A DNA stretch of 64,000 nucleotides from Pantoea piersonii (GTDB lineage: Bacteria; Pseudomonadota; Gammaproteobacteria; Enterobacterales; Enterobacteriaceae): NCBI RefSeq assembly GCF_003612015.1, contig NZ_RARB01000002.1:185583-249582 (forward strand), written 5' to 3'. The notes beneath the pieces were generated by a model. It was not told where the DNA came from. It worked only from the letters and a program-made list of their open reading frames with translations, and searched no databases. Numbering within the stretch: the stretch's first letter is position 1; the number at the start of each line of letters is the position of its first letter. The translations under genes were made by a program, and so were the position numbers. Below, piece by piece: positions 2,790 through 13,829 of this stretch.

Positions 2790-2863
2790 CGACTCGGGGT
2801 GCCCTTCTGCGTGAAGGCTGAGAAATACCCGTATTACCTGATCTGGATAATGCCAGCGTAGGG
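2790..2863 (+). promoter_or_regulatory. TPP riboswitch (thi box), native copy cut at attL
   Basis: Contains the thi-box landmarks ACTCGGGGTGCCC, GGCTGAGA and CCTGATCTGGATAATGCCAG. The P3 arm sequence is essentially that of the enteric thiM riboswitch. After GTAGGG the sequence diverges into element DNA (CCACCGTC), so the expected P1 3' strand (AAGTCA) is missing. It is therefore the chromosomal 5' part of the thiM riboswitch, left at attL and followed by the integrase rather than by thiM. Ligand binding is probably impaired because P1 cannot close. Confidence 0.9.
2836..2863 (+). repeat. attL core, 28-bp direct repeat
   Basis: Identical to 13750-13777. It spans the conserved P4/P5 half of the TPP aptamer (ACCTGATCTGGATAATGCCA and the following GCGTAGGG). 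Flanks differ on both sides, as expected for a site-specific crossover within it. Confidence 0.88.
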
Positions 2864-2883
2864 CCACCGTCAAAGACGTAAAT

Positions 2884-2915
2884 GTAACCCGTTTTTATTA
2901 AAAACAACGGGTTAC
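2884..2915 (+). terminator. Strong hairpin between attL and integrase
   Basis: GTAACCCGTT (2884-2893) pairs perfectly with AACGGGTTAC (2906-2915). Only a short pyrimidine stretch follows, so it may be a weak terminator or attenuator shielding the integrase from the captured thiM promoter, or a protein-binding dyad. Confidence 0.4.
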
Positions 2916-2943
2916 TTATCTCTCATTGCTCTCTAATTTTCAC

Positions 2944-2960
2944 TGAGGTCAAATGAGGGT
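2944..2960 (+). repeat. Putative integrase arm-type site near attL
   Basis: TGAGGTCAAATGAGGGT shares TGAGGTCAA plus a G-rich tail with two tandem copies near attR (13550-13570, 13574-13594). It overlaps the integrase leader, where occupancy could also autoregulate int. Confidence 0.5.
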
Positions 2961-2966
2961 GACATT

Positions 2967-4259
2967 ATGAGGTATAAATCTCTTCGTTATACGTTTCAGC
3001 GTTCGAATACGTATTACATCCAATTCCGTTTCTCTGACGGTAAATCTTTCAAACGTAGCCTCGACACTGATAGCTATCGTGTTGCCAGCGCGATGATGGC
3101 TTCGCTGATTCCTCTGGTTCCATTTGTCCAAGATCAAACTCTTGCACTGACAGATTTCACAAAACGCATTGATGCAATCAAATCCTCACTAGCAGGGGAT
3201 TTGAAAAGTGTCCTTTCGTTTGCAGGTGGTAAATCAAAGTCTGAGAAAGCTGTGAAGCCTAAAGAGGTAAAGTCGGGTTTGTCACTCGTCAAAGCCTGGG
3301 AAATGTATAAGGCGGCGAAAGGAACTAAATGGAGTCGTGGAATTGCACAGGCCAATGAGCGCTTCATGGAGGTTTTGTTTGTTGTGCTGGGCAAGGAGAA
3401 GGATGTAATCACGGTCAACAAACATGACATCAAGCAAGTAATGGAAGTAGTTGAAAATCTGCCTAAGCGTGTAGTGCAGCCATACCGCTCTATGACGCTG
3501 GAACAATTGATAGCGCTTGAAGACGTTCCAGAGGCTGATCTTGTTGGTGATGAGGCGATGCATAAGCATCTGAAGATCTACAAAAGCCTGTTCAAAACCT
3601 TCCTTACTGATGACAAGGGAATACTTGAAAAGAGTCCTACAGACGGCATTTCCGCTTCAGCCTCTAAAGCACGTTATGGCGCTTACTCTGCATCTGAGAT
3701 GAGGAAGTTTGTTCAGTGGGCTATTGGGCAGCCGGAGGGCTGGGAGAAATGGATCATGCTGCTGCTTGCTTACACGGGGTGCAGAAGAGGTGAAATAGCC
3801 ACATTACGTAAGCAGCAAATCAAGTATGACGAAGATAGCAAACGTCACTACCTTCTTATTGCTGAAAATGGGCAGGGCAAGACAGACAATGCTACCCGTA
3901 GAGTTGTAATACACTTGCACCTGATTGAATGGGGCTTCTTGGACTTTGTAGCGCAATCTGATGATGTTCTTTTCCCTGATGTCTCAGGAAGCAACATGAC
4001 GAAGATAGGTAAGACGTTTTCTGATGTCAGAGATCAACTTGGTATTCCTTATCTTGATGATCACCAGCAAAGAAGGTTACTTCATTCAATGCGCCACGCT
4101 GTAGCCACAACCTCAATGGCGGGTTGGGTGAAAAACGTTGCTCACCTACAAGCTACATTAGGGCATCAAATGACAGGGATCGGAGTTACCAAACGATATT
4201 TACACTCATTCCCATTATCAGCGATTCATTACGTGATTGATGGGTTAGATTGGAGCTAA
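2967..4259 (+). CDS. int: Tyrosine recombinase (integrase)
   Basis: Site-specific recombinase of 430 residues, presumed to integrate and excise the element at the TPP riboswitch core. The C-terminal catalytic domain shows the first Arg in TGCRRGEIATL (residues ~270-280), the HxxR box in HSMRHAVAT (~375), the second His in LGHQMTG (~398) and the Tyr nucleophile in TKRYLHSF (~410). The N-terminal ~200 residues form arm-binding and core-binding regions of low similarity to known enteric phage integrases. It is the first gene inside attL and reads inward. Substrate specificity for a riboswitch is inferred from position. Confidence 0.93.
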   Translation: MRYKSLRYTFQRSNTYYIQFRFSDGKSFKRSLDTDSYRVASAMMASLIPLVPFVQDQTLALTDFTKRIDAIKSSLAGDLKSVLSFAGGKSKSEKAVKPKEVKSGLSLVKAWEMYKAAKGTKWSRGIAQANERFMEVLFVVLGKEKDVITVNKHDIKQVMEVVENLPKRVVQPYRSMTLEQLIALEDVPEADLVGDEAMHKHLKIYKSLFKTFLTDDKGILEKSPTDGISASASKARYGAYSASEMRKFVQWAIGQPEGWEKWIMLLLAYTGCRRGEIATLRKQQIKYDEDSKRHYLLIAENGQGKTDNATRRVVIHLHLIEWGFLDFVAQSDDVLFPDVSGSNMTKIGKTFSDVRDQLGIPYLDDHQQRRLLHSMRHAVATTSMAGWVKNVAHLQATLGHQMTGIGVTKRYLHSFPLSAIHYVIDGLDWS

Positions 4260-4522
4260 ACTTAAAGGGCTAAAGTTACTCCAGACTCACTTATAGTGAG
4301 TTTCGTCTATACGCCAATTGCAATAAATCTCGTCTAGATTAACTTCGCTTGTGGCGGGATTTTGCTATTACCTCCACCTACCCGGGATATTTTGACGCCC
4401 CCTTCCGAACACACACGCAAAGCGTTAAGCCGCGCAAAACCCCGCCGCCAAAATGAACAGGTCGAACCAGCCAAATATCTGAAGGTGAACATTTCTCTTT
4501 AGGGTATACCTCAAAAATAGTT
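4260..4522. other. Intergenic region with inverted repeats, int to serine recombinase
   Basis: No gene seen. A hairpin ACTCACT/AGTGAGT (4285-4301) lies just after int and may end its transcript. A 13-bp inverted repeat with one mismatch (4353-4365 GGCGGGATTTTGC, 4434-4446 GCAAAACCCCGCC) encloses 68 bases. Either could be a recombination or regulatory site. Confidence 0.4.
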
Positions 4523-4544
4523 ATGAGAATGGTCTCATTAGGGT
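4523..4544 (+). promoter_or_regulatory. Operator-like dyad, copy 1
   Basis: ATGAGA-N4-TCTCAT followed by TAGGGT. The same 22-bp arrangement recurs exactly 50 bp downstream and the dyad again at 5648-5663. Its position before the serine recombinase suggests a repressor or recombinase site. Confidence 0.55.
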
Positions 4545-4572
4545 GTTATTTTCACCTTATTGACTACGAAAA

Positions 4573-4594
4573 ATGAGATGCGTATCATTAGGGT
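4573..4594 (+). promoter_or_regulatory. Operator-like dyad, copy 2
   Basis: ATGAGA-N4-TATCAT followed by TAGGGT; one mismatch in the right arm relative to copy 1. It ends 27 bases before the recombinase ATG. Confidence 0.55.
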
Positions 4595-4621
4595 CACTTA
4601 GATGAACCTTTGAGAGACTTT

Positions 4622-5266
4622 ATGGTTAATACATTGATTTATGCTCGTGCGTCTACTGCTGGACAGAACAGCTCTCGTGCGCTGCCTTCACTGCGTGAGT
4701 TCGCTGGTGCTCGTGGTTGGCACGTTAGTGGTGAGTATGTGGAGAATGCTTCAGGTGCAAAGCTGGCACGTCCAGAACTGGATAAGCTACTGTCAGATAG
4801 TAAAGCTGGTGATGTGCTGCTGGTGGAGAGTATCGACCGCCTGAGCCGTCTTGAGGCTACACAGTGGGAAGTGTTGAAGCGTAACATCCAGGATAAGGGA
4901 CTGTTGCTGGTGGTGATGGATTTGCCTACTTCGTGGAATATGCTTCAGGGTGAAATGACCCCGGTGATCGCTGGTGTGTTGAAAGCCGTCAACTCTATGC
5001 TGATAGACATTCTGGCGACTATGGCACGTCAGGACTATGAGACACGCCGCGCACGTCAGGCGCAAGGGATTGCTAAGGCTAAAGAAGCTGGCGTTTATGC
5101 TGGTAAGCCGAAGGATGAGGAAGCGCGTGAAATGGTTCGAGATCTGCTGGAGAAGGGCGTAGGACCTGCACGTATTATGAAAGCTGCTGGTATTAGCCGT
5201 GCCACTTACTACCGAATCAAAAAAGAGTTGGCTGTGAATGAAAAAGATTCCCGGACAACCAGATAA
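4622..5266 (+). CDS. Serine recombinase (resolvase/invertase family)
   Basis: Small serine recombinase of 214 residues. The N-terminal catalytic domain has the nucleophile Ser in YARASTAGQ and the arginines of ESIDRLSRLEATQW; a long helical segment follows; the C-terminus carries a helix-turn-helix (GPARIMKAAGISRATYYRIKKE). Length and order match Tn3-type resolvases and DNA invertases. The ATG at 4622 is preceded by GAGAG. Two 22-bp dyads lie just upstream and could be its site or that of a regulator. No invertible segment is obvious, so its target within the element is unknown. A/G-rich codon use differs from the host genes. Confidence 0.88.
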   Translation: MVNTLIYARASTAGQNSSRALPSLREFAGARGWHVSGEYVENASGAKLARPELDKLLSDSKAGDVLLVESIDRLSRLEATQWEVLKRNIQDKGLLLVVMDLPTSWNMLQGEMTPVIAGVLKAVNSMLIDILATMARQDYETRRARQAQGIAKAKEAGVYAGKPKDEEAREMVRDLLEKGVGPARIMKAAGISRATYYRIKKELAVNEKDSRTTR

Positions 5267-5388
5267 GGATTGCTAGTCCGGGGTGCCCCCAGTAAGGCAA
5301 TGTTCACACAGCAAGAAGGGAAATCACCGCGAATAGATTTCCCTCCCAACATAGCTTCCTGCCATGCTAACGGCACTATCTCATTATT
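5267..5388. other. Hairpin-rich spacer after serine recombinase
   Basis: A CCCGGAC/GTCCGGG inverted repeat straddles the recombinase stop (5250-5256, 5275-5281), and GGGAAATC (5318-5325) pairs with GATTTCCC (5336-5343). Neither is followed by a T-run, so termination is uncertain. Confidence 0.35.
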
Positions 5389-5559
5389 TCACAATACTTT
5401 CAGGCGTTTTTTTATGTTCTTTTGCCTTTCTGCAAACTCATGACGCAGATCATCTTTTAATACCGCTTCAATGAAGGCTAACTGCTTTTCATTAAATTCC
5501 CAGCCATCCAGTTTTTGAGCTTCCACTTCTTTTAGTTTGTTGCCCAATACAGTATGCAC
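5389..5559 (-). CDS. Small charged helical protein, unknown
   Basis: A 56-residue frame starting with GTG at 5559 and preceded by GGGGGGAG with four bases of spacing, a strong ribosome site. The product is Lys/Glu-rich and predicted helical (segments EVEAQKLDGWEF, EAVLKDDLRHEF and a basic C-terminus KNIKKRLKVL). It may be a small DNA- or protein-binding regulator. It is divergent from the short frame at 5674, with the third ATGAGA-N4-TCTCAT dyad between them. I do not recognise a family. Confidence 0.5.
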   Translation of the reverse strand: MHTVLGNKLKEVEAQKLDGWEFNEKQLAFIEAVLKDDLRHEFAERQKNIKKRLKVL

Positions 5560-5647
5560 AAAGCTCCCCCCATGCCAGTGAACAAAAAAGTAAAAGAAGT
5601 AACCACGTCAATCTCCGTGACATTGAACCTTTGTAAAATCATACAAG

Positions 5648-5663
5648 ATGAGAATTATCTCAT
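5648..5663. promoter_or_regulatory. Operator-like dyad, copy 3
   Basis: Perfect ATGAGA-ATTA-TCTCAT, same arms as the dyad at 4523. It lies between divergent short frames (5559 minus, 5674 plus), a typical place for an operator. Confidence 0.5.
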
Positions 5664-5673
5664 AAGATCATAA

Positions 5674-5826
5674 ATGGACCTGGCTTTAGGATTAGTCCTA
5701 GATCTTTTTGTAGAAGATTTGACGTTAAAGCTGGGAGTTATAGCTCATAAGCGAGCTAAGAAAAGTAACCGGCAACGTATAAGGAGTAACACGAAGCCGG
5801 GGCCTGGAGTGGCAAGGGCGGCTTAA
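5674..5826 (+). CDS. Possible 50-residue protein
   Basis: ATG at 5674, eleven bases after the dyad. The product has a hydrophobic N-terminal half (LALGLVLDLFVEDL) and a strongly basic tail (HKRAKKSNRQR). The ribosome site is poor, so this is a candidate only. The region could instead be a structured leader or RNA. Confidence 0.25.
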   Translation: MDLALGLVLDLFVEDLTLKLGVIAHKRAKKSNRQRIRSNTKPGPGVARAA

Positions 5827-5916
5827 GCCACCGACGTTGGTATCACGAGGAAGATTCAAAATCCTCGGCACTAAATCATTATAACAATAAAACATAACTT
5901 ATACATTTAAATTATT

Positions 5917-5937
5917 AAAAATACCTCTTTTGAGGTA
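5917..5937 (-). terminator. Intrinsic terminator of the minus-strand element operon
   Basis: On the minus strand TACCTC-AAAA-GAGGTA (5937-5922) is followed by TTTTT (5921-5917), six bases after the stop of the 140-residue gene. Confidence 0.7.
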
Positions 5938-5942
5938 ATCAA

Positions 5943-6365
5943 CTAAGGGCGGTGCACCTGCCGTAAATCATCTGCCAAAGTGCAAGGCCACGCCTTAAAA
6001 TCCCAACTCTCCAATGTCCAGGCTGTTCGCCATTTCACAACAAACCATTCCCAACTTTGACTGATGCTGTTTGCGTCAACTTGTTCGCGTTGCTCGTCCG
6101 ATAGCTTACGCTCTCCGCTCACATAATCTTCGAAGTTGTCCTGATGGATCAGGTAGCCCGGTGAGTATTCAATGAAGGGCGTCCCATCAATACGGCGGGG
6201 GCACGGTATTTGCTTCTCTCTGGCTTTCTCAGGCGCTTTCGGTTGTTCTTGTATGTTGATGTTATCTAACTTGTTTAGATCGTTTCTGATGGCGCTGATG
6301 CGACTTGCTGCATCTGCGTTCAGGTATTCGCTTGCGCGTTGGTTGTAGTCTTTACGTTGTCCCAT
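5943..6365 (-). CDS. Unknown element protein, 140 residues
   Basis: Soluble, hydrophilic protein with a perfect GGAGG ribosome site before the ATG at 6365. The N-terminal half is Asn/Asp/Lys-rich and probably helical; the C-terminal half is Trp-rich (SWEWFVVKWRTAWTLESWDFKAWP). Last gene of the minus-strand operon, ending six bases before an intrinsic terminator. No family recognised. Confidence 0.72.
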   Translation of the reverse strand: MGQRKDYNQRASEYLNADAASRISAIRNDLNKLDNINIQEQPKAPEKAREKQIPCPRRIDGTPFIEYSPGYLIHQDNFEDYVSGERKLSDEQREQVDANSISQSWEWFVVKWRTAWTLESWDFKAWPCTLADDLRQVHRP

Positions 6366-6520
6366 TGAGCCTCCGGGCAGTTATTGGCGCTGCGGCTGTA
6401 TGCCGAGGATTAGTTGCGACCGTTGATTATTAAAATTAAAACTAAGTAGTGGTATGACCAGCGGTCAAACTGCGGTATGAAAAAGCTGTTTTGAATAAAA
6501 CTTTTGAAGATGAAATGTTG

Positions 6521-7792
6521 TTAAGCAAAGCGGTAATCTGAAGGCACAATCCCATACTGGAGAAACGTAAAGCTGTCTGACTGCCATTGCGCCACTCTGA
6601 TAAAAAGATCCTGCCAGATGCTTTCTGCGGTGCCTGCTGGCAACTTCTTATTAGCCTGAACAAAGGCTCTTGGAACGATGCTATTTTGTTTGTGAGGGTT
6701 CGCTGCGTCTGCCAGACTAGACAGGAGGTTTTCTTGATCTGCATCCATTGTTGACAGTTGGGTGTGATAGGGTGGATAGGCCAGGAAGTAGTTGTATCCT
6801 CCACGGCACAGCGCATAACCTTCCTTAACCAGCGATTGAGCATACCGCTGTTGTTGACTGCCTGACGGGTAAAGCTGTGCGAATCGAATCAGTTCGCGCA
6901 GATAAACTTCTGCTACTTTCTTCTCCGGGTAAACCGGGAGTGCTTCCCTGTGGTCGGACGATTCAAGGCGTTTCCCCGTGGCTTTGTTGTAACGGGTGAT
7001 TTCTTGTTCTAAGTGGTTCATATCGTGTTCCTCATTCTCAGTGTATGGCTCGCCAAAGTGCTCGCGTATCTGCACCATGACTTCTTTGTTATGTAATTGG
7101 GAAGCAATCTCCAGTAATCGAAAGAACGGGAGATTCTCCAGATTGGGGATTTTTGCCTTTAAAGACTTGTAGGTGATTTCTTTTTTACCGCGCTCAACGC
7201 CTGATGCACGAAGAAACTCCTCCCAGATACCTTGTTCAGTAAGGTATGTGCGGATTTTGGCTCTGATGCTGCTGTCGCTTGTGTTGGCGTCAATACGGTA
7301 TGGCATCTTGAGGTATCCGGCTGCAATGCTGACGCCATGACCCTGAACAGGCATTGCTGCCTGTGCTGCACGGTTATTGCTGGCTGGTGCAACAAAGAGA
7401 TTGTTTGGGTGAAGTGTGCCGATCCTGCCTTTTACTTTCTTGCCGGGGTAGATGTGGCAAATGTCATAGTTGAAACCATCCTTCGCATACGGCAAACGCG
7501 ATTGTTTCCATCTCACCAGATGGAACAGGGCAAGCATTTCTGCTTTGGTGGCTGGAAGGATTTCGACTGTTTTACTTCGCTTGCATTGCTTCACCAGCCA
7601 GTCTGATACACCTGAACGAAAGAAGGCAGACTCCAGATCTTCAAGTGGTGTCTCTGATTGTTTGGTTGATGTTTTGGATGATTTTGTTGGTTGTTTTCTT
7701 GATGCTGCTTTCCGGCAATTGACGCTGCAATAGACTGCTGTGGAACGTTGAGGCTGAAACTCAACTCCACACTGTTTGCAATGAATGTTCAT
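6521..7792 (-). CDS. Unknown protein with N-terminal zinc ribbon and HNH-like segment
   Basis: Predicted 423 residues from the ATG at 7792, chosen for its AAGGAG site; an upstream frame to 7840 lacks one. The N-terminus carries four cysteines spaced as a zinc ribbon (HCKQCGVEF, then VYCSVNCRKAAS). Around residues 105-145 DICHIYPG, a Gly-rich gap and HPNNLFVAPASNNRAA follow the H...N...N pattern of HNH nucleases, though the usual second Cys pair is missing. The C-terminal 250 residues have no recognisable motif. It is the largest protein of the minus-strand operon and may be a DNA-binding or nicking enzyme. Function is inferred from motifs only. Confidence 0.75.
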   Translation of the reverse strand: MNIHCKQCGVEFQPQRSTAVYCSVNCRKAASRKQPTKSSKTSTKQSETPLEDLESAFFRSGVSDWLVKQCKRSKTVEILPATKAEMLALFHLVRWKQSRLPYAKDGFNYDICHIYPGKKVKGRIGTLHPNNLFVAPASNNRAAQAAMPVQGHGVSIAAGYLKMPYRIDANTSDSSIRAKIRTYLTEQGIWEEFLRASGVERGKKEITYKSLKAKIPNLENLPFFRLLEIASQLHNKEVMVQIREHFGEPYTENEEHDMNHLEQEITRYNKATGKRLESSDHREALPVYPEKKVAEVYLRELIRFAQLYPSGSQQQRYAQSLVKEGYALCRGGYNYFLAYPPYHTQLSTMDADQENLLSSLADAANPHKQNSIVPRAFVQANKKLPAGTAESIWQDLFIRVAQWQSDSFTFLQYGIVPSDYRFA

Positions 7793-7814
7793 ACACTCCT
7801 TGTGAAATAGATTA

Positions 7815-8057
7815 AGGGGTAATGTCGTGACTGATGTCACTCCAAAGAATACCTGTGAAACAGGCCTTAGCGTGACATATTCTTACCCCTGCTAGATCAT
7901 CATTCTTTTTGGGGTAAAACCCAGTAATGACGCGGGTTTAGAGGTCATTAATTGCTGTTCAAAAAATAACCGACCTCCGAAAAATGGCCCTTTTTTACCT
8001 CTATTTTACTCCCCCATTTTCGAGACTTTTATCTAAGAAGGGAGTAAAATTTTTCGG
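7815..8057. promoter_or_regulatory. Dyad-rich leader between two element genes
   Basis: Region of about 290 bases without a gene. AGGGGTAA (7815-7822) pairs with TTACCCCT (7883-7890) around CCTGT/ACAGG. ATTTTACTCCC (8003-8013) pairs perfectly with GGGAGTAAAAT (8040-8050), and CCGAAAAAT (7977-7985) pairs with ATTTTTCGG (8049-8057). The last two share two bases and could be alternative structures. It lies upstream of the zinc-ribbon gene on the minus strand. Confidence 0.5.
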
Positions 8058-8086
8058 TGCTGATGTGAGAGATAACTGTGTTCATT

Positions 8087-8554
8087 TTACTCACTCTCAC
8101 TGTCTGCCAGTGCCGCCCGGATACGTTCGCGCATACTTGGGGCTTCTGCTTCCAGTGTTGCGGCTTCCTCTGCTGCTTTTGCTTCCATTTCTGCACGGTG
8201 GCGGGCTGCATACACCTGACTGATTTCATCGGTGATTTCGTCCATCAGTGCAGCTTCGGCTGCTGCCTCGAGCTCTACACGATCTGCATCGATGACAGAC
8301 TGAGGGCGGTCGAGAACAACGCGCATCATTGGACTACCCGGAATGAAGATGTCCTGTGATCGCAGGTCTGCAATGCGGTATCCGTTGAGGATGTGCTCTT
8401 GCAGGCGCACTAAACTGATCGGATGGGGTTCTGTTAGCTCGACACGCTCACGCAAGTGACGACGGACATACTCGGATACGTATCCGTCTCGTTCTGCCTT
8501 GTAGATGGCTTTGATTTCTTTTACTGCTGCTGGTGGTAGTGAGAATGGTTTCAT
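8087..8554 (-). CDS. Unknown helical element protein, 155 residues
   Basis: Acidic, Ala/Glu-rich protein with a predicted coiled C-terminal half (AARHRAEMEAKAAEEAATLEAEA). An AAGGAG ribosome site lies just before the ATG at 8554, and the ATG overlaps the stop of the preceding gene (ATGA), implying translational coupling. No family recognised; probably a phage-type regulatory or accessory protein. Confidence 0.7.
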   Translation of the reverse strand: MKPFSLPPAAVKEIKAIYKAERDGYVSEYVRRHLRERVELTEPHPISLVRLQEHILNGYRIADLRSQDIFIPGSPMMRVVLDRPQSVIDADRVELEAAAEAALMDEITDEISQVYAARHRAEMEAKAAEEAATLEAEAPSMRERIRAALADSESE

Positions 8555-8931
8555 TGTTGTTGCTCCTTAATTTCTAAAAGTCGTTTGATGTTGATTCGGT
8601 TGCAGCTTTTGCACGTAAAGGGTGATTTGTTATCTGCCGCGTATTCGGTGACGTAATACCAGGTGCCATCGTAGTAATCCTTTCGGATGAGGGCAGATTC
8701 TAGCCACTGATTTAAAACACGATGAGGGTTGCCGTTATCCCATTCCTGAATGAAGTCTTCCCAGGTGAAGCAGTGCTTCATCATCTGTTCAGCCCAATAC
8801 AGGAAGGCCACACGGGTTGGGGTTGTCGGTAGGTTATGACTGCGGAGGCGGTCACGGTAAACGTGATATTCAAATCGAGGTAGCCACGTCTCGATGAGGT
8901 GCAGCGAATTGCTGCTGTCTGTGTCATTCAT
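8551..8931 (-). CDS. Unknown element protein, 126 residues, C-terminal CxxC
   Basis: Trp/Tyr-rich small protein ending in a CKSCN pair, possibly a half zinc site. The ATG at 8931 is chosen; the longer frame to 9039 begins with TTG inside a structured leader. GGAA sits somewhat far upstream. It is the first gene after a near-consensus minus-strand promoter and overlaps the next gene by four bases. Confidence 0.65.
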   Translation of the reverse strand: MNDTDSSNSLHLIETWLPRFEYHVYRDRLRSHNLPTTPTRVAFLYWAEQMMKHCFTWEDFIQEWDNGNPHRVLNQWLESALIRKDYYDGTWYYVTEYAADNKSPFTCKSCNRINIKRLLEIKEQQQ

Positions 8932-8959
8932 CTGTATGAGATTTCCTTTTGTTAAGATG

Positions 8960-9047
8960 AAAAAATCCCACGCGAAAGGAAAGCCCGGTTCATTACGGAG
9001 ACACTGCTTGGATGACAGTTTTGATAATGAACGCGGCAATCGCGTGG
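8960..9047 (-). terminator. Attenuator-like stem with T-run in operon leader
   Basis: In the minus-strand transcript CCACGCGA (9047-9040) pairs with TCGCGTGG (8975-8968) around a 64-base loop, followed by GA and six U's, ahead of the first gene. A long-loop intrinsic terminator would make the operon conditional. Confidence 0.4.
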
Positions 9048-9179
9048 AACTTTTTGGGTTTCACTGGTGTGAAGGTTTGCTATGAAATGGTGCTGTGTGA
9101 CGCGATCACGGCTGGGCCTGTGATGCCCAAAGCTCGATAGGGGAAAGTAAACTCTGAGCTTTGCTTACCCTACACCCTC

Positions 9180-9208
9180 ATAATAACAGATTTAGCACAA
9201 AATGTCAA
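9180..9208 (-). promoter_or_regulatory. Near-consensus sigma-70 promoter of the minus-strand operon
   Basis: Minus strand TTGACA (9208-9203), exactly 17 bp, TATTAT (9185-9180). The inverted pair ATAACAGA (9183-9190) and TCTGTTAT (9229-9236) brackets the promoter and is a likely repressor operator. The transcript would have a leader of roughly 240 bases before the gene at 8931. Confidence 0.75.
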
Positions 9209-9442
9209 TTGTTATTTATTGACTTGATTCTGTTATCTGTGATAGGGAAGGTTATTGCTGAGTGGTATCTAATGGGAATAAAGGTTGCTTGAATGACGGC
9301 TGTTTTGTAAACATAGTATCTCACTATTAGAGCGAGTTATGGGATCAAGGAGCAGGCTATCACTATCAGGGACGAATGCTTTCGATACATACGGCACGGT
9401 GTTAACAATGGCGGTAAGGATGACTGGCGCACGCCGTTTCAG

Positions 9443-10027
9443 TTGTTAAGGGAATTAGACAATGAATTTGATTTCACGGTTGATGCAGCAGCAGATGCTG
9501 ATAATGCAGTGTGTGATCGTTATTGGGATGCTGGTGCTGACGCACTAAAACAGAGCTGGAAAGGTGAGAGGGTGTTTTGCAATCCTCCTTTCTCAATGAC
9601 GGCTGATTTCCTTACAAAAGCAGGTGAGGCTGACTTATCCATATTGGTGATTGCAGCTAGGCCACAAGCTACATATTTTCTCTCTGGCGTGTTCGCTAAC
9701 CCTCACTGTCACGAAATCAGGTTTCTGCATCGTGGCGTCAAGTTCATCCATCCTGCACGGCTTGAGAGCGTCAGATCACCATTACCAATCTGTGTTGTTG
9801 TGTTTAGAAAAGAACATTGTGCAGGAGATAAGCGCGTAACTGTAGCTTGTGCCGATTCAGGGAAGGAGTTATGCACGGTAGCAGGACGTAAGCCTGGCAA
9901 ACCTTCAACGCACACATTCTCAATCAAGGATAAGGTTATTCAGGACTTTAGGAGAGGCATTAAGGTAGGTGAATTAGTGGAGCGGCATAAAGTGAGTAGG
10001 GCAACCATTTACAGATGGGTCAGATAG
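9443..10027 (+). CDS. Phage-type N6-adenine DNA methyltransferase with added C-terminal HTH
   Basis: Member of the phage Dam-like family: LDNEFDFTVDAAAD is followed by the catalytic FCNPPFS (N-P-P-F) and a substrate region with HPARLESVRSPLPICVVVF. The last ~45 residues (VIQDFRRGIKVGELVERHKVSRATIYRWVR) form a resolvase-type helix-turn-helix like that of the element's serine recombinase, not usual for this family. The first in-frame start is TTG at 9443, yet the conserved KDDWRTPFQ block is encoded upstream at about 9416-9442 in the same frame with no ATG, GTG or TTG before a stop at 9314. Either a rare start or a 5' frameshift is involved (an ATG at 9339 is out of frame). Confidence 0.8.
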   Translation: MLRELDNEFDFTVDAAADADNAVCDRYWDAGADALKQSWKGERVFCNPPFSMTADFLTKAGEADLSILVIAARPQATYFLSGVFANPHCHEIRFLHRGVKFIHPARLESVRSPLPICVVVFRKEHCAGDKRVTVACADSGKELCTVAGRKPGKPSTHTFSIKDKVIQDFRRGIKVGELVERHKVSRATIYRWVR

Positions 10028-10148
10028 CTCCTGTGATGTTCTAAGAAACACGCTTAACAGAATTGGTTGTTGGGTCAAGGTTGGAGAATAGAGTGCATAA
10101 GAAGGGCATTACAGGAAGTGTAAGATGTTGTGAGTTATCTCAGCAGGA

Positions 10149-10355
10149 TAACCTTAAGGTTAACTGTATTGTGTTTCATCTGTTAGATCAGAGAGGTTAG
10201 AACTAACGTTAGTTAGCACTAGAGTTAAGGTGATGTATCTAACCACTCACTAACCTTGTCCCTTTATCTTAAACAGGAAGGGATACATTAATTAGCTATG
10301 TTCCATTCCGTAGACTCCTATCTACGATAGTCATCTACTACATGAAACATAGCTA
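10149..10355. promoter_or_regulatory. Palindrome cluster, possible origin or control region
   Basis: Noncoding stretch within 10028-10513. It holds perfect palindromes TAACCTTAAGGTTA (10149-10162) and AACTAACGTTAGTT (10201-10214), several further CTAAC/GTTAG half-sites up to 10260, and a 10-bp inverted repeat TAGCTATGTT (10293-10302) with AACATAGCTA (10346-10355). Iterated half-sites suggest a replication origin or regulator array; no gene is visible here. Confidence 0.4.
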
Positions 10356-10513
10356 GAGAGAATATTTAAATAAAAGGATTACCATACTCGCTATCGCTCG
10401 CAACTTCGGCGTTAAAATACCACAAACAAAAGTAAAAGTCAATTAAATTCTCTTGCTTTTTATCTGGTTGTATGCTCGCAAATGGCTAGACAATTTTTTG
10501 TTTTGCCACATAA

Positions 10514-10660
10514 CTCAAAGTTAAGGGCAGACGTTGACATCCGGCGCGGATAACCCGAGCTTACAGCAAGATAACGGTGCTTTTGCCATCTTCTGAGGGT
10601 TCCTGTTTCATCGGATGGCCTAAAAACTCCGCTCCTCCACAGGCAATAACGGCATGCCCT
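10514..10660 (-). ncRNA. Candidate TldR guide RNA (scaffold from the tldR 3' end plus guide)
   Basis: Beyond the tldR stop the minus strand has an ATCCG-CGC-CGGAT hairpin (10551-10539) and GTCAA, like the right end of IS605-family elements that closes TnpB omega-RNA scaffolds. The next bases (10533 down to 10514) would be the guide: CGTCTGCCCTTAACTTTGAG. Its complement contains AAAGTT, as in sigma-28 -35 elements, and GACG, as in the -10 of the adjacent flagellin promoter, but the 9-bp gap between them is not the canonical arrangement. The scaffold 5' boundary is not visible; 10660 is nominal. The RNA probably overlaps the tldR 3' end and may be processed from its mRNA. Confidence 0.6.
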
Positions 10661-11685
10661 GCCGCTAGAATCTTCTCAGCCCTAAGCCTGCCATAAAGGT
10701 TGCTTGAGGCGTTATCTGAAACTGGCTTGAAATTGTTATCGCGTTCGCGCACGGTCATAAGTTCGCCACCATTCCAATTCAGCTTGTAATCAAGCTGCCT
10801 TTTTAATTCATAAGTCTCGTTGGATAGGAAACGTTTAGTGCTCTTAGGACGCTTTGATAAAGAGGTTGCAGCCTCAAGATTTTCGATCACAACAATCGCG
10901 TGGTTTTTGCTTAGTGTTGTTGAAATCTTATGAAAATGGTCTTTACGCATATTTGAGATGCGATTTAACAAGCGGTTTACTTTATGCCTTTGTTTGACCC
11001 AATTAGAGCTAAATCTCTTCTTCTTGCGCAGACGCTTAATGTTTTTCTCAAGAGACTTTTCCATTTTGGGTAAAGATGCTTGAGACAAAAAATCAGTGCT
11101 GTCAGAAGTGGTGATGCATTCAATGTTGCTGGCATCAAGACCTATCATTGATGATTGCTGCGATGAAGGTTCATCAACCTCAGCTTCGGTCTGCAAACTC
11201 ACATACCACTTGTCCAGCTTCATTGAAACTGTGACGTTTTTAATCACGCCTGTAATGGAGCGACTTTTTCTGTAACGCACCCAACCTAACTTAGGCAATT
11301 GGATTCTTTCATTGCCTTCATCAAGCTTCACGCGCTGAGTGGGATAACGGAATGCATCATTTTTCCCTTTCTTTTTTGGGGAAGGAAAGGTTGCTCTACG
11401 TGAAAAGAGATTGTTGAATGCTTTATCAAGATCCTTCAATGTTTGTTGAAGGATCTGGGAAGGGGCATTACTCAACCAGGACATTTCTTCTTGGCTTTTC
11501 CATTCAACAAGCCACGGTGCCATTTTATTATAAGGTATGTAGCGATCACCATTTCTCCAGATGTCGCTTTGCATAGTTAGAGCACGATTGTAGACAAAAC
11601 GACAAGCACCAGCGAATGACTTCATAGAAGCAATCTGTTCTGGATTTGGTTTCAACTGAAACTTGTATGCTTGACGCCTGATCAT
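10561..11685 (-). CDS. tldR: TnpB-like nuclease-dead repressor (TldR), flagellin-associated
   Basis: IS605 OrfB/TnpB homologue of 374 residues. The N-terminal helix-turn-helix/WED region starts RRQAYKFQLKPN. The RuvC core keeps the first Asp (MIGLDAS) and the Glu (VVIENLEAA). The segment between YKLNWNGGELM and KILAAGHAVIACGG is shortened: the CxxC...CxxC zinc finger is gone and the third catalytic Asp of the usual D-x-N-G-A-x-NIL motif is replaced (GRLRAEKIL). No tnpA and no left end accompany it. Together with the adjacent flagellin gene this matches TldRs, RNA-guided repressors that silence host fliC. Separated from fliC by a terminator and a 16-bp palindrome. Nuclease inactivity is inferred from missing residues. 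Confidence 0.9.
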   Translation of the reverse strand: MIRRQAYKFQLKPNPEQIASMKSFAGACRFVYNRALTMQSDIWRNGDRYIPYNKMAPWLVEWKSQEEMSWLSNAPSQILQQTLKDLDKAFNNLFSRRATFPSPKKKGKNDAFRYPTQRVKLDEGNERIQLPKLGWVRYRKSRSITGVIKNVTVSMKLDKWYVSLQTEAEVDEPSSQQSSMIGLDASNIECITTSDSTDFLSQASLPKMEKSLEKNIKRLRKKKRFSSNWVKQRHKVNRLLNRISNMRKDHFHKISTTLSKNHAIVVIENLEAATSLSKRPKSTKRFLSNETYELKRQLDYKLNWNGGELMTVRERDNNFKPVSDNASSNLYGRLRAEKILAAGHAVIACGGAEFLGHPMKQEPSEDGKSTVILL

Positions 11686-11744
11686 TTCGACAACTATTTA
11701 ACCTAAAAGTAGACTTCAAATTATGTGTATTTCATCAGTAAACA

Positions 11745-11760
11745 CATTGCAATTGCAATG
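11745..11760. promoter_or_regulatory. 16-bp perfect palindrome upstream of tldR
   Basis: CATTGCAATTGCAATG lies between the flagellin terminator and tldR, about 60 bases before the tldR start. It embeds TTGCAA, usable as a -35, so it may be an operator over the tldR promoter. Confidence 0.45.
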
Positions 11761-11771
11761 CTTTTACGGTT

Positions 11772-11804
11772 GAAATAAAGCCCCCCGCGAATACGGGGAG
11801 CCTT
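11772..11804 (-). terminator. Intrinsic terminator of element flagellin
   Basis: Minus strand GCTCCCCG (11801-11794) pairs with CGGGGGGC (11787-11780), one G-U pair, followed by TTTATTT. It separates fliC from tldR; readthrough could still feed tldR. Confidence 0.8.
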
Positions 11805-11809
11805 TGCTA

Positions 11810-13318
11810 TTAGCCCTGAAGCAGAGACAATACCTGCTGTGGAACCTGATTAGCTTTAGCCAACACTGAGTTACCTGCCTGCTGGATGATCTGTGCTTTA
11901 GACATGTTTGAAACTTCAGTAGCGTAATCTGCATCCTGAATACGAGACTGCGCTTCAGAAAGGTTAGTAGTGGTGTTGTTCAGGTTAGTTACCGCTGAAT
12001 CCAGACGGTTCTGAACAGCACCTAAGCTTGAACGGAACTTATCAACCTGCGCGATAGCAGCATCAAGTGCTTTTAAAGGATCCGTTGTTGTTGTGGTGCT
12101 TACTTCAGCTAGGGGGCTTGAGGTGTCAGAGAAATCATGTTTAGATGCTTTAGATGCAAGATAAGTCTTACTACCAATAGTAGCAACCTCAGTATGACCG
12201 TCGATTCCCCCTAATTCTACAGCAGCTTTAGAGCTGGCACCTACTGATGAAGTATAGGAAATTGTCTTGGCATCGAGAGTGGTGCCATTAGTTCCATCAT
12301 AATCCGTTGCATAGAGTTTACCACCTGCAGCCTGCAAGGCATAACCAGCATTAGAAGTATTGCCATTGGTATCAGTTTCGGTCAACTTAACAAGAGTAAG
12401 GTCATCTGCGCCGTTAGTTAATGTCACGCCTGCTGCAGCCAAGGTAGAAGCAGCCTTAGTCAAGTCAATTGCATTGCCTGAACCTTGTTGAACAAACGTT
12501 ACAGCGGTCGCTCCAGTTGGAGAGGCTGTCTTATTAGAAACTTTGACGCTTCCATCTGTTCCAACTGTAGCCTCATAAGTTCCGCTAATAGATCCAGTAG
12601 ATGCTGTATCATTCACCGCAGCATAATATTTACCTGAGTCCTTATCGAAGGTTACTCCTGTGACAGACAAGGTGCCACCTGAACCTGCGGTTAAATCTGA
12701 TGTGTCAGCTGAACCAGTATTTATAGAGGTTGTTGTATTGGAATAAGTCAGTCCAGTTACAGCTTCTGAAGTAACAGATGTTGGTTTTTGGACATTAAAT
12801 CCAGAAAGTCCAAGTGTGGAAGAGTCAATTTTCTGCAAATCAATGCTAATAGTCTGCCCATCGTTTGCACCCACTTGGATTGACATTGAGTTATTAGCCT
12901 TTGATAGAACGCTTACTCCGTTGAACTGGGTTTGACCTGAAACGCGGTCAATCTCGTCCAGACGTGAGGTGATTTCGTCTTGGATTGAAGACAAGTCGGA
13001 ATCAGAGTTGGTGCCGTTCTGTGCTTGAACAGTCAGTTCACGAACACGCTGTAAGTTGTTGTTGATTTCTGACAGTGCGCCTTCAGTGGTCTGCGCCAGT
13101 GAGATACCGTCGTTGGCGTTACGCGCAGCCTGAGTCAGGCCATTAATGTTTGAGGTGAAACGGTTAGCTATTGCCTGGCCCGCTGCGTCATCTTTGGCGC
13201 TGTTAATGCGAAGACCAGAAGACAGACGCTCAATTGATGAAGATAGAGCAGACTGGTTCTTGTTGATGTTGTTCTGAGTGATCAGCGAGAGGCTGTTGGT
13301 GTTAATTACTTGAGCCAT
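11810..13318 (-). CDS. fliC: Flagellin carried by the mobile element
   Basis: Full-length flagellin of 502 residues, filament subunit exported by the flagellar type III system. The conserved N-terminal D0/D1 (AQVINTNSLSLITQNN, ERLSSGLRINSAKDDAAG) and C-terminal D1/D0 (QNRLDSAVTNLNNTTTNL, ending QVLSLLQG) are intact; residues ~180-400 form a Thr/Ser/Gly-rich variable surface region. No other flagellar gene is nearby, so it must use host export and assembly. It has its own sigma-28 promoter, and its neighbour tldR is predicted to repress the host copy, replacing the filament antigen and phage receptor. Lower G+C in the variable region. Confidence 0.96.
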   Translation of the reverse strand: MAQVINTNSLSLITQNNINKNQSALSSSIERLSSGLRINSAKDDAAGQAIANRFTSNINGLTQAARNANDGISLAQTTEGALSEINNNLQRVRELTVQAQNGTNSDSDLSSIQDEITSRLDEIDRVSGQTQFNGVSVLSKANNSMSIQVGANDGQTISIDLQKIDSSTLGLSGFNVQKPTSVTSEAVTGLTYSNTTTSINTGSADTSDLTAGSGGTLSVTGVTFDKDSGKYYAAVNDTASTGSISGTYEATVGTDGSVKVSNKTASPTGATAVTFVQQGSGNAIDLTKAASTLAAAGVTLTNGADDLTLVKLTETDTNGNTSNAGYALQAAGGKLYATDYDGTNGTTLDAKTISYTSSVGASSKAAVELGGIDGHTEVATIGSKTYLASKASKHDFSDTSSPLAEVSTTTTTDPLKALDAAIAQVDKFRSSLGAVQNRLDSAVTNLNNTTTNLSEAQSRIQDADYATEVSNMSKAQIIQQAGNSVLAKANQVPQQVLSLLQG

Positions 13319-13396
13319 GGTAAAAGTTCCTATTAATCAAGTCATTTGGTTAAGGTTTGGGCTTAAACCCCTTCGGCTTCAGCGCCGTCATACCTA

Positions 13397-13423
13397 CTAT
13401 CGTCACCCCTCAGAAAAACTTTA
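13397..13423 (-). promoter_or_regulatory. Sigma-28 (FliA) promoter of element flagellin
   Basis: Minus strand TAAAGTTT (13423-13416), exactly 11 bp, GACGATAG (13404-13397), against consensus TAAAGTTT-N11-GCCGATAA. The leader to the flagellin ATG is about 70 bases. Hence it is expressed with late flagellar genes under host FliA. Confidence 0.88.
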
Positions 13424-13549
13424 ACTTCCTTTTTATTTCTTTTTCCAAACTAACGTTCGGTAGGGGCTTGCATCAGGCAGCCTGTCAACCAGCCATCTTT
13501 ATTAATCGGCACATTGGCTCATTTCCTTAAACTTTTGGATAATGCCTAG

Positions 13550-13570
13550 GTGAGGTCAAGGGTGGGGTAA
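13550..13570 (+). repeat. Arm-type direct repeat, attR side, copy 1
   Basis: GTGAGGTCAAGGGTGGGGTA and one more A; repeated 24 bp downstream with one substitution and related to the site at 2944. Probable integrase or excisionase binding site. Confidence 0.55.
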
Positions 13571-13573
13571 AAC

Positions 13574-13594
13574 GTGAGGTCAAAGGTGGGGTAA
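13574..13594 (+). repeat. Arm-type direct repeat, attR side, copy 2
   Basis: Second 21-bp copy (TGAGGTCAAAGGTGGGGTAA with leading G), start-to-start spacing 24 bp from copy 1 and about 155 bp from the attR core. Confidence 0.55.
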
Positions 13595-13646
13595 TCAGGC
13601 TTTATCCGTTTCCGGCGATCAAGAAGGCGAATGTGGAGAGGCTAGC

Positions 13647-13676
13647 TTGCTTTGCAAGCGACACTTCCCGTATGCT
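13647..13676 (+). promoter_or_regulatory. Element-supplied promoter now driving thiMD
   Basis: TTGCTT (13647-13652), 18-bp spacer, TATGCT (13671-13676): same hexamers as the native thiM promoter at 2747 in a different context. It lies inside the element, left of the attR core, so thiM expression now depends on mobile DNA. Confidence 0.6.
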
Positions 13677-13705
13677 GGTGAAAAGTAATGAGAGATTTAC
13701 TTTAA

Positions 13706-13783
13706 TGACTCGGGGTGCCCCTGTATACAGGGCTGAGATACACCCGCTGACCTGATCTGGATAATGCCAGCGTAGGGAAGTCA
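13706..13783 (+). promoter_or_regulatory. Hybrid TPP riboswitch upstream of thiM (attR)
   Basis: Complete thi box: TGACT (13706-13710) closes P1 with AGTCA (13779-13783); GGGGTGCCC, a self-complementary P3 arm CCCTGTATACAGGG, GGCTGAGATA and the CCTGATCTGGATAATGCC core are present. Everything left of the 28-bp core is element DNA; everything right of it is chromosomal. The thiM ATG is only 46 bases beyond, with GGGAG in between, consistent with translational control as in enteric thiM. Confidence 0.93.
13750..13777 (+). repeat. attR core, 28-bp direct repeat
   Basis: Identical to 2836-2863; flanks diverge immediately (CGCTG left, AAGTCA right). Marks the right junction of the element within the aptamer. 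Confidence 0.88.
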
Positions 13784-13829
13784 GATGCCTGACCGCATTC
13801 GCCTTCTTGTTCGCCGGTTGGGAGTAATA

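What the first reader, a model, noticed from the sequence alone, without database searches (positions are those of the whole stretch)
10514..13423. Flagellin plus TnpB-derived RNA-guided repressor module (fliC-tldR) on a mobile element
A full flagellin gene with a sigma-28 promoter is followed on the same strand by a TnpB homologue that has lost the RuvC-III Asp and the whole zinc finger, with no tnpA. This is the gene pair of TldRs, in which phage-borne loci use a guide RNA to repress host fliC and substitute their own filament protein. It would let the element change the host's H-antigen and flagellotropic phage receptor. Here it sits in a small element without phage structural genes, a context I do not know to be described.
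Basis: partly seen in the sequence, partly recalled or inferred. Interest (0 to 1): 0.97.

Follow-up and report, generated by a model that had tools for sequence, protein, structure and literature searches.

The report
Flagellin-swapping RNA-guided module on genomic island
A likely mobile DNA island, inserted in the vitamin-B1 riboswitch of a bacterium that is probably Pantoea, carries a spare flagellin gene and a relative of RNA-guided DNA-cutting enzymes that has lost cutting residues and is predicted to use a short guide RNA to silence the host's own flagellin, a swap that the one study I could read describes for a phage.

Summary
Window 10561-11685(-) encodes a TnpB relative without the RuvC-III Asp and zinc finger (RuvC-I D184 and RuvC-II E268 remain); 11810-13318(-) is an intact flagellin with its own sigma-28-type promoter. 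The island's own flagellin promoter breaks both TAM and seed. The same guide stands in three related viral contigs, where tldR lies near phage tail genes. The tldR body is under purifying selection (dN/dS about 0.1); dS falls about threefold where the guide scaffold would overlap the gene. The carrier is not a prophage but a 10.9-kb island whose integrase family sits in the TPP riboswitch upstream of thiM; relatives carry other cargo, several with defence genes. The module is a known kind (fliC-associated TldR; FRphi prophage, PMC13418256). The riboswitch island as its carrier, and the probable Pantoea host, I found in no paper searched, but the original TldR paper was not held. Repression and filament replacement are inferred.

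The parts
2836..2863 (+). attL: 28-bp core of the direct repeat, inside a TPP riboswitch aptamer (2785-2881)
2864..13777 (.). the island, 10,914 bp with one copy of the repeat counted
2967..4259 (+). tyrosine integrase of a family found in thiM TPP-riboswitch islands
4610..5266 (+). serine recombinase (resolvase/invertase type)
5943..6365 (-). ORF of unknown function
6521..7840 (-). ORF of unknown function, weak NinG/HNH-like N-terminus below Pfam's cut-off; one homologue cluster found
8087..8554 (-). ORF of unknown function
8551..9039 (-). ORF of unknown function
9443..10027 (+). Dam-type adenine methyltransferase with a C-terminal HTH match below Pfam's cut-off
10521..10533 (-). 13-nt guide (reads 10533 down to 10521), matches the host fliC promoter
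10534..10680 (-). predicted guide-RNA scaffold (5' limit approximate), overlapping the 3' end of tldR
   Evidence: no RNA measured
10561..11685 (-). tldR: TnpB-derived, RuvC-III Asp and zinc finger missing
11810..13318 (-). fliCP: intact flagellin of the island
13397..13423 (-). sigma-28-type promoter of fliCP, TAM and seed positions altered
13750..13777 (+). attR: second copy of the 28-bp core, inside the TPP riboswitch (13701-13795) upstream of thiM

Best explanation
This is a likely mobile 10.9-kb genomic island, inserted in the TPP riboswitch upstream of thiM in a chromosome that is probably Pantoea's, which carries an intact flagellin gene and a TnpB-derived gene that has lost its RuvC-III and zinc-finger residues and is predicted to bind a short guide RNA and silence the host's own flagellin promoter. 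Shown by sequence: the lost residues, the 13-nt guide and its GTTAT-flanked site on the host fliC promoter, the altered site at the island's own flagellin promoter, the selection pattern, the repeats at both ends and an empty site in a relative. Inferred: the guide RNA is made from the 3' end of tldR and the bases after it; TldR would bind between -10 and -35 of host fliC and keep sigma-28 polymerase off; the island's flagellin, which keeps the conserved ends, would then build the filament. Inferred too: the island moves by its integrase and not as a phage.
For: Lost RuvC-III Asp and zinc finger in the window and in all 10 close relatives aligned. A 13-nt match, the longest between 10300-10800 and two flagellin loci, falls on the host fliC promoter with GTTAT before it; GTTATCGTCTGCC occurs once in the genome. 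The guide is invariant in the four loci aligned and the sequences diverge soon after it. Own flagellin promoter: 2 TAM and 2 seed mismatches; L009's: 2 and 1. dN/dS 0.08-0.11 in codons 1-335, dS 1.03-1.07 there and 0.33-0.39 in codons 336-374, for the three pairs with the window. Up to 2 mismatches, the 18-nt site is in 48 of 61 genus genomes against 7 of 61 for the reversed pattern; 18 of 20 loci read lie 76-78 nt upstream of a flagellin start, and all 18 keep TAM and 6-nt seed. Island: 28-bp repeats in two TPP aptamers, empty site in L129, 433 bp without a gap at 89%, integrase by a TPP core in 14 of 14 fetched relatives. The mechanism is published for FRphi (PMC13418256).
Against: No RNA, binding or expression data. 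The 181-nt stretch with the guide folds no better than shuffles (z -0.68), and none of 55 predicted pairs shows a two-sided change in four sequences. Promoter and terminator scans found no more than shuffles, so the tldR promoter is unknown. The structure model failed (mean pLDDT 37). TAM plus seed alone also occurs at four other places in the genome (not followed up). tldR was seen in 1 of 61 genus genomes and 1 of 394 order genomes, own only, so I have one example of this carrier and no proof that it moves.
Confidence: 0.85

Rival explanations
1. The island is a remnant of an FRphi-like prophage that lost its structural genes, so the context is decay and not a different carrier.
For: The three viral relatives have tldR near tail genes, and the published carriers are prophages (PMC13418256). 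The island holds phage-like genes such as an integrase and a Dam-type methyltransferase.
Against: Besides fliC and tldR, none of the queried island proteins matched the fetched stretches of those three viral contigs (up to 14 kb each, not whole contigs). The integrase belongs to a family found in thiM TPP islands of 2.7-17 kb with other cargo. Both ends are intact 28-bp repeats, and fliC and tldR are intact.
Confidence: 0.12
2. The pair works as a switch between two flagellins (phase-variation-like) and not as a constant replacement of the host filament.
For: Only an inverted repeat and no clear promoter lie before tldR; the FRphi paper leaves varying expression in vivo open. The island also has a serine recombinase, though no invertible promoter was looked for.
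Against: In the studied Enterobacter lysogen TldR and FliCP expression appeared constitutive in the laboratory (PMC13418256).
Confidence: 0.15
3. tldR is a decaying tnpB that has lost its function, and the guide match is an accident.
For: Part of its C-terminal catalytic region is gone, and the RNA fold gives no signal.
Against: dN/dS about 0.1, guide invariant in four loci, a site that occurs once in the genome and sits on the fliC promoter, escape changes at the island's own promoter.
Confidence: 0.03

Closest known systems
fliC-associated TldR with its guide RNA, as in FRphi of Enterobacter sp. BIDMC93 (PMC13418256; abstract, introduction, three further sections, part of the legends and found passages seen)
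   Same: Flagellin gene beside a TnpB-derived protein with a lost nuclease; a guide to the host fliC promoter; 6-nt seed intact at the site
   Different: There a 53.5-kb infectious phage carries it; here a 10.9-kb island without phage structural families among the ORFs scanned. Host probably Pantoea; the paper's text holds no mention of Pantoea (listing)
TnpB of IS200/IS605 elements (P0012 and others; solved structure 8bf8)
   Same: HTH_OrfB and OrfB domains; sequence match over about residues 1-307; conserved 3' end of the gene
   Different: RuvC-III Asp and zinc finger missing; about 47% identity; no tnpA seen; the guide is fixed across loci
Tyrosine-integrase islands in the TPP riboswitch upstream of thiM (L033-L046 here; no name found in print)
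   Same: Integrase about 110-130 bp from a TPP core, second core by thiM in 11 of 14
   Different: Cargo: here fliC-tldR; in the others, where scanned, PD-Lambda-2, a type II restriction-modification pair, AbiJ or SMODS domains, among others
csrA-linked TldRs of gut commensals (PMC13418256)
   Same: TldR tied to a flagellin gene
   Different: Chromosomal, with csrA, and targets inside fliC reading frames; csrA was not seen among the island ORFs scanned

Membership tests
fliC-associated TldR | TnpB homologue with a lost RuvC active site | tested here: met
   RuvC-III Asp and zinc finger missing; D184 and E268 remain. Loss of cutting itself was not measured
fliC-associated TldR | flagellin gene beside tldR, no tnpA | tested here: met
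   fliCP 11810-13318 and tldR 10561-11685 on one strand; no tnpA among 9 ORFs scanned
fliC-associated TldR | guide that matches the host fliC promoter next to a TAM | tested here: met
   13 of 13 nt, GTTAT before it; that GTTAT is this clade's TAM is recalled, the held paper's text does not give the letters
fliC-associated TldR | guide RNA bound by TldR; repression of host fliC | not testable with these tools
   needs RIP-seq, ChIP-seq and RNA-seq
FRphi-type flagellin remodeling prophage | carried by a phage with structural genes | tested here: not met
   no structural family hit among the 9 island ORFs scanned
IS200/IS605 transposon | tnpA with tnpB and active nuclease motif | tested here: not met
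   no tnpA hit; RuvC-III Asp lost
thiM TPP-riboswitch island (this report's grouping) | integrase of this family beside one TPP core, second core upstream of thiM | tested here: met
   empty site in L129
thiM TPP-riboswitch island (this report's grouping) | excision and transfer | not testable with these tools
   no reads or circle junctions available

The most novel reading that the evidence does not exclude
A non-viral family of small islands that insert in the TPP riboswitch of thiM, and that elsewhere carry anti-phage genes, has taken up the RNA-guided flagellin swap as cargo: programmable remodelling of a cell organelle spreads without a virus, with a fixed guide that fits the fliC promoter of much of the genus.
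Probability: 0.65. Interest if true: 0.75.

Novelty: new variant of a known kind. Interest (0 to 1): 0.66.

Why it matters
If true, the fliC-TldR swap is not tied to phage life, so its benefit must reach the bacterium or the island itself. A carrier without virions lets the cost and gain of flagellar remodelling be measured apart from induction and lysis. It also exposes an integrase family that uses a riboswitch as its landing site and appears to rebuild it for thiM, with cargo that in some relatives includes defence systems.

Tried and rejected
Structure prediction of TldR from a 12-sequence alignment gave mean pLDDT 37 and was not used; no fold search was made. Folding of the guide-RNA stretch gave no signal above shuffles and no two-sided changes. 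The idea that the guide fits many genera failed: GTTATCGTCTGCC occurs in 62 of 392 family genomes, own included, but only 1 of the 20 loci read lies by a flagellin, so most are probably chance; the fit is seen within the genus. Searches for the island in E. coli genomes and plasmids gave short matches (about 5% of the query in the rows listed, at flagellin genes) or none. The largest unknown ORF stayed unknown: no relative in viral contigs, phages or plasmids and one homologue cluster among proteins. A search of genome contigs with TldR gave one distant locus only. That the integrase might be under thiamine control through the hybrid aptamer at attL was left as a note: the int-side aptamer reaches Rfam's cut-off in the window and 3 of 7 islands scanned. 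P0001-P0010 could not be seen in context, as no contig fetch by protein was on hand.
Full report
WHAT IS THERE. On the minus strand of the window, 11810-13318 is an intact flagellin gene and 10561-11685 a TnpB-like gene. Pfam gives Flagellin_N, Flagellin_C, FLIC_barrel and Flagellin_D3 for the first, and HTH_OrfB_IS605 and OrfB_IS605, but no zinc ribbon, for the second. In the alignment the window protein keeps D184 and E268, the first two RuvC acidic residues, and lacks the four-Cys zinc finger and the Asp of the third motif that TnpB P0012 has. All 10 close relatives aligned there lack them too; two of them (P0005, L011) have also changed the first Asp. One search found 3735 proteins and listed 120: P0001-P0010 (70-98% identity) lack the zinc-ribbon domain, the other 110 (44-51%) carry it. 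By sequence the protein matches solved TnpBs over about residues 1-307 (8bf8, E 2e-33).

THE GUIDE. A search for shared words of 11 or more between window 10300-10800 (minus strand) and two 8-kb flagellin loci of the same genome gave one match of 13 nt, window 10533 down to 10521, and six of 11 nt, all in the other locus. A 13-nt match somewhere in that search space is not very rare (about 0.2 expected by my arithmetic); its place is what counts. It starts right after a stretch that is invariant in all four loci aligned (GGATGTCAA), is itself invariant in all four, and the sequences begin to diverge one base later in L011 and a few bases later in the others. On the host side it lies in the fliC promoter, which reads TAAA-N15-GACGATAA, and the five bases before the match are GTTAT. 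One fixed 13-mer would match somewhere in the 140 nt upstream of fliC, either strand, about 4 times in a million (my arithmetic). GTTATCGTCTGCC occurs once in the genome; GTTATCGTCTG, TAM plus seed, five times. The island's own flagellin promoter has 2 TAM and 2 seed mismatches, that of L009 2 and 1, so the repressor would spare them. The second host flagellin locus (L007) has no site with fewer than 6 mismatches of 18.

SELECTION. Between the window and L009, L010 and L011, codons 1-335 of tldR have dS 1.03-1.07 and dN/dS 0.08-0.11; codons 336-374 have dS 0.33-0.39. Of the six pairs five were printed; the two printed pairs without the window agree (dS 0.40 and 0.74 against 0.04), and the sixth had dS 0 in the last block. 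The identical-codon fraction at conserved residues is 0.90 in codons 341-360 and 0.94 in 361-374, against 0.48-0.87 in the other blocks. In one search most of the short DNA matches to other genomes start at window 10674 and end near 10591, in the 3' end of tldR. This is what a guide-RNA scaffold that overlaps the end of the gene would give. No RNA was measured, and folding and covariation gave no support.

TARGETS IN THE GENUS. With up to 2 mismatches the 18-nt site is in 48 of 61 genus genomes, the reversed control in 7 of 61; exact in 16 of 61, own included. Of the 56 places listed I read 20: 18 lie 76-78 nt upstream of a flagellin start, and all 18 keep GTTAT and the 6-nt seed; two lie by no flagellin. 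Among the 36 not read, some have a change in TAM or seed. In the family at large the fit is poor.

THE CARRIER. The pair lies in a 10,914-bp stretch bounded by a 28-bp perfect repeat (2836-2863 and 13750-13777). Both copies are the core of a TPP riboswitch aptamer (59.9 and 75.2 bits, cut-off 54.3); the right one is upstream of the ORF that I read as thiM. In genome G411 (L129) the joined flanks align without a gap across the junction (433 bp, 89%): the empty site. The aptamer half now upstream of thiM (13701-13749) differs from the host-type half left at attL, so the island seems to bring its own half and rebuild the riboswitch. The integrase has relatives in 24 of 392 family genomes at E up to 1e-60 and 5 of 61 genus genomes at E up to 1e-120, own included. 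I fetched the 14 closest of the 24 places outside the own genome: in 14 of 14 a TPP core (up to 3 mismatches of 28) starts 111-120 bp from the integrase match, and in 11 a second core lies by thiM, 2.7-17 kb away; in the other 3 the contig ends first. Of the 133 ORFs in those 11 islands I scanned 20 with Pfam (10 had a hit) and 10 with PADLOC. Hits include PD-Lambda-2 proteins (L041), a cytosine methylase beside an ATPase protein with restriction-enzyme matches (L042), an AbiJ N-terminal domain (L044), a SMODS domain (L034) and domains of unknown function. None of the 20 hit a phage structural family in Pfam. The window's island also carries a serine recombinase, a Dam-type methyltransferase and four ORFs of unknown function. 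GC is 0.44-0.46 in the island against 0.56-0.60 in the flanks.

THE VIRAL RELATIVES. L009, L010 and L011 encode TldRs 81-85% identical to the window's. Eight of their ORFs near tldR that I chose for a PHROGs scan all hit tail or baseplate families; L009 also has an integrase-like ORF by my reading. Their other genes do not match the seven other island ORFs queried, within the fetched stretches.

HOST. An 8-kb stretch of its 402-kb contig is 98.8% identical over its whole length to a Pantoea piersonii plasmid, NZ_CP115896.1, and the two close tldR relatives that carry a name are from Pantoea. I take the host to be P. piersonii or close to it.

RELATION TO PRINT. The one held paper on flagellin TldRs that my searches found is PMC13418256; I saw its abstract, introduction, two results sections and the discussion, part 1 of the legends, and passages found by term. 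It reports that FRphi, a 53.5-kb phage, swaps flagellin by TldR in Enterobacter, with a 6-nt seed. The text holds no mention of Pantoea (listing). The original report (Nature 2024, recalled) is not held, so a Pantoea or island-borne copy may be listed there. Five searches for a riboswitch or thiM as an integration site (listings and starts of abstracts only, capped lists) showed no paper on it; a term search in PMC10121019 on E. coli defence hotspots found neither thiM nor riboswitch.

VERDICT. The module meets every feature of the fliC-associated TldR kind that I could test by sequence; its function is inferred from that. The carrier is a different kind of element from the published one, seen here once. 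The interest lies in the carrier, the host and the riboswitch landing site more than in the mechanism, which is known.

Noticed in passing
2785-2881 and 13701-13795: Integration leaves two TPP aptamers: one upstream of the integrase (59.9 bits) and one upstream of thiM (75.2 bits). The integrase may be read through a hybrid riboswitch; the int-side aptamer passes the cut-off in the window and 3 of 7 islands scanned.
   Followed up: partly
L034, L041, L042, L044: Islands at the same thiM riboswitch site in other genomes carry SMODS, PD-Lambda-2, type II restriction-modification and AbiJ-type genes; the site looks like a hotspot for defence cargo.
   Followed up: partly
4523-4544, 4573-4594 and 5648-5669: Partly palindromic repeats (ATGAGA...TCTCAT type) around the serine recombinase gene, a candidate binding or resolution site.
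   Followed up: no
10293-10355: 30-nt inverted repeat (77% complementary, 3-nt loop) in a stretch without ORFs of 60 aa or more, downstream of the guide.
   Followed up: no
6521-7840: 439-aa ORF with a weak NinG/HNH-like N-terminus; one homologue cluster (P0121, about 90% identical, 12.3-kb contig) in the protein search.
   Followed up: partly
L007:3495-4964: The host has a further, divergent flagellin on a 402-kb contig similar to a Pantoea piersonii plasmid; no guide site with fewer than 6 mismatches of 18 in that 8-kb locus.
   Followed up: partly
P0011: A 563-aa protein with the zinc-ribbon domain scores far above the other zinc-ribbon TnpBs against TldR (533 bits, 44% over 79%); its make-up was not examined.
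   Followed up: no
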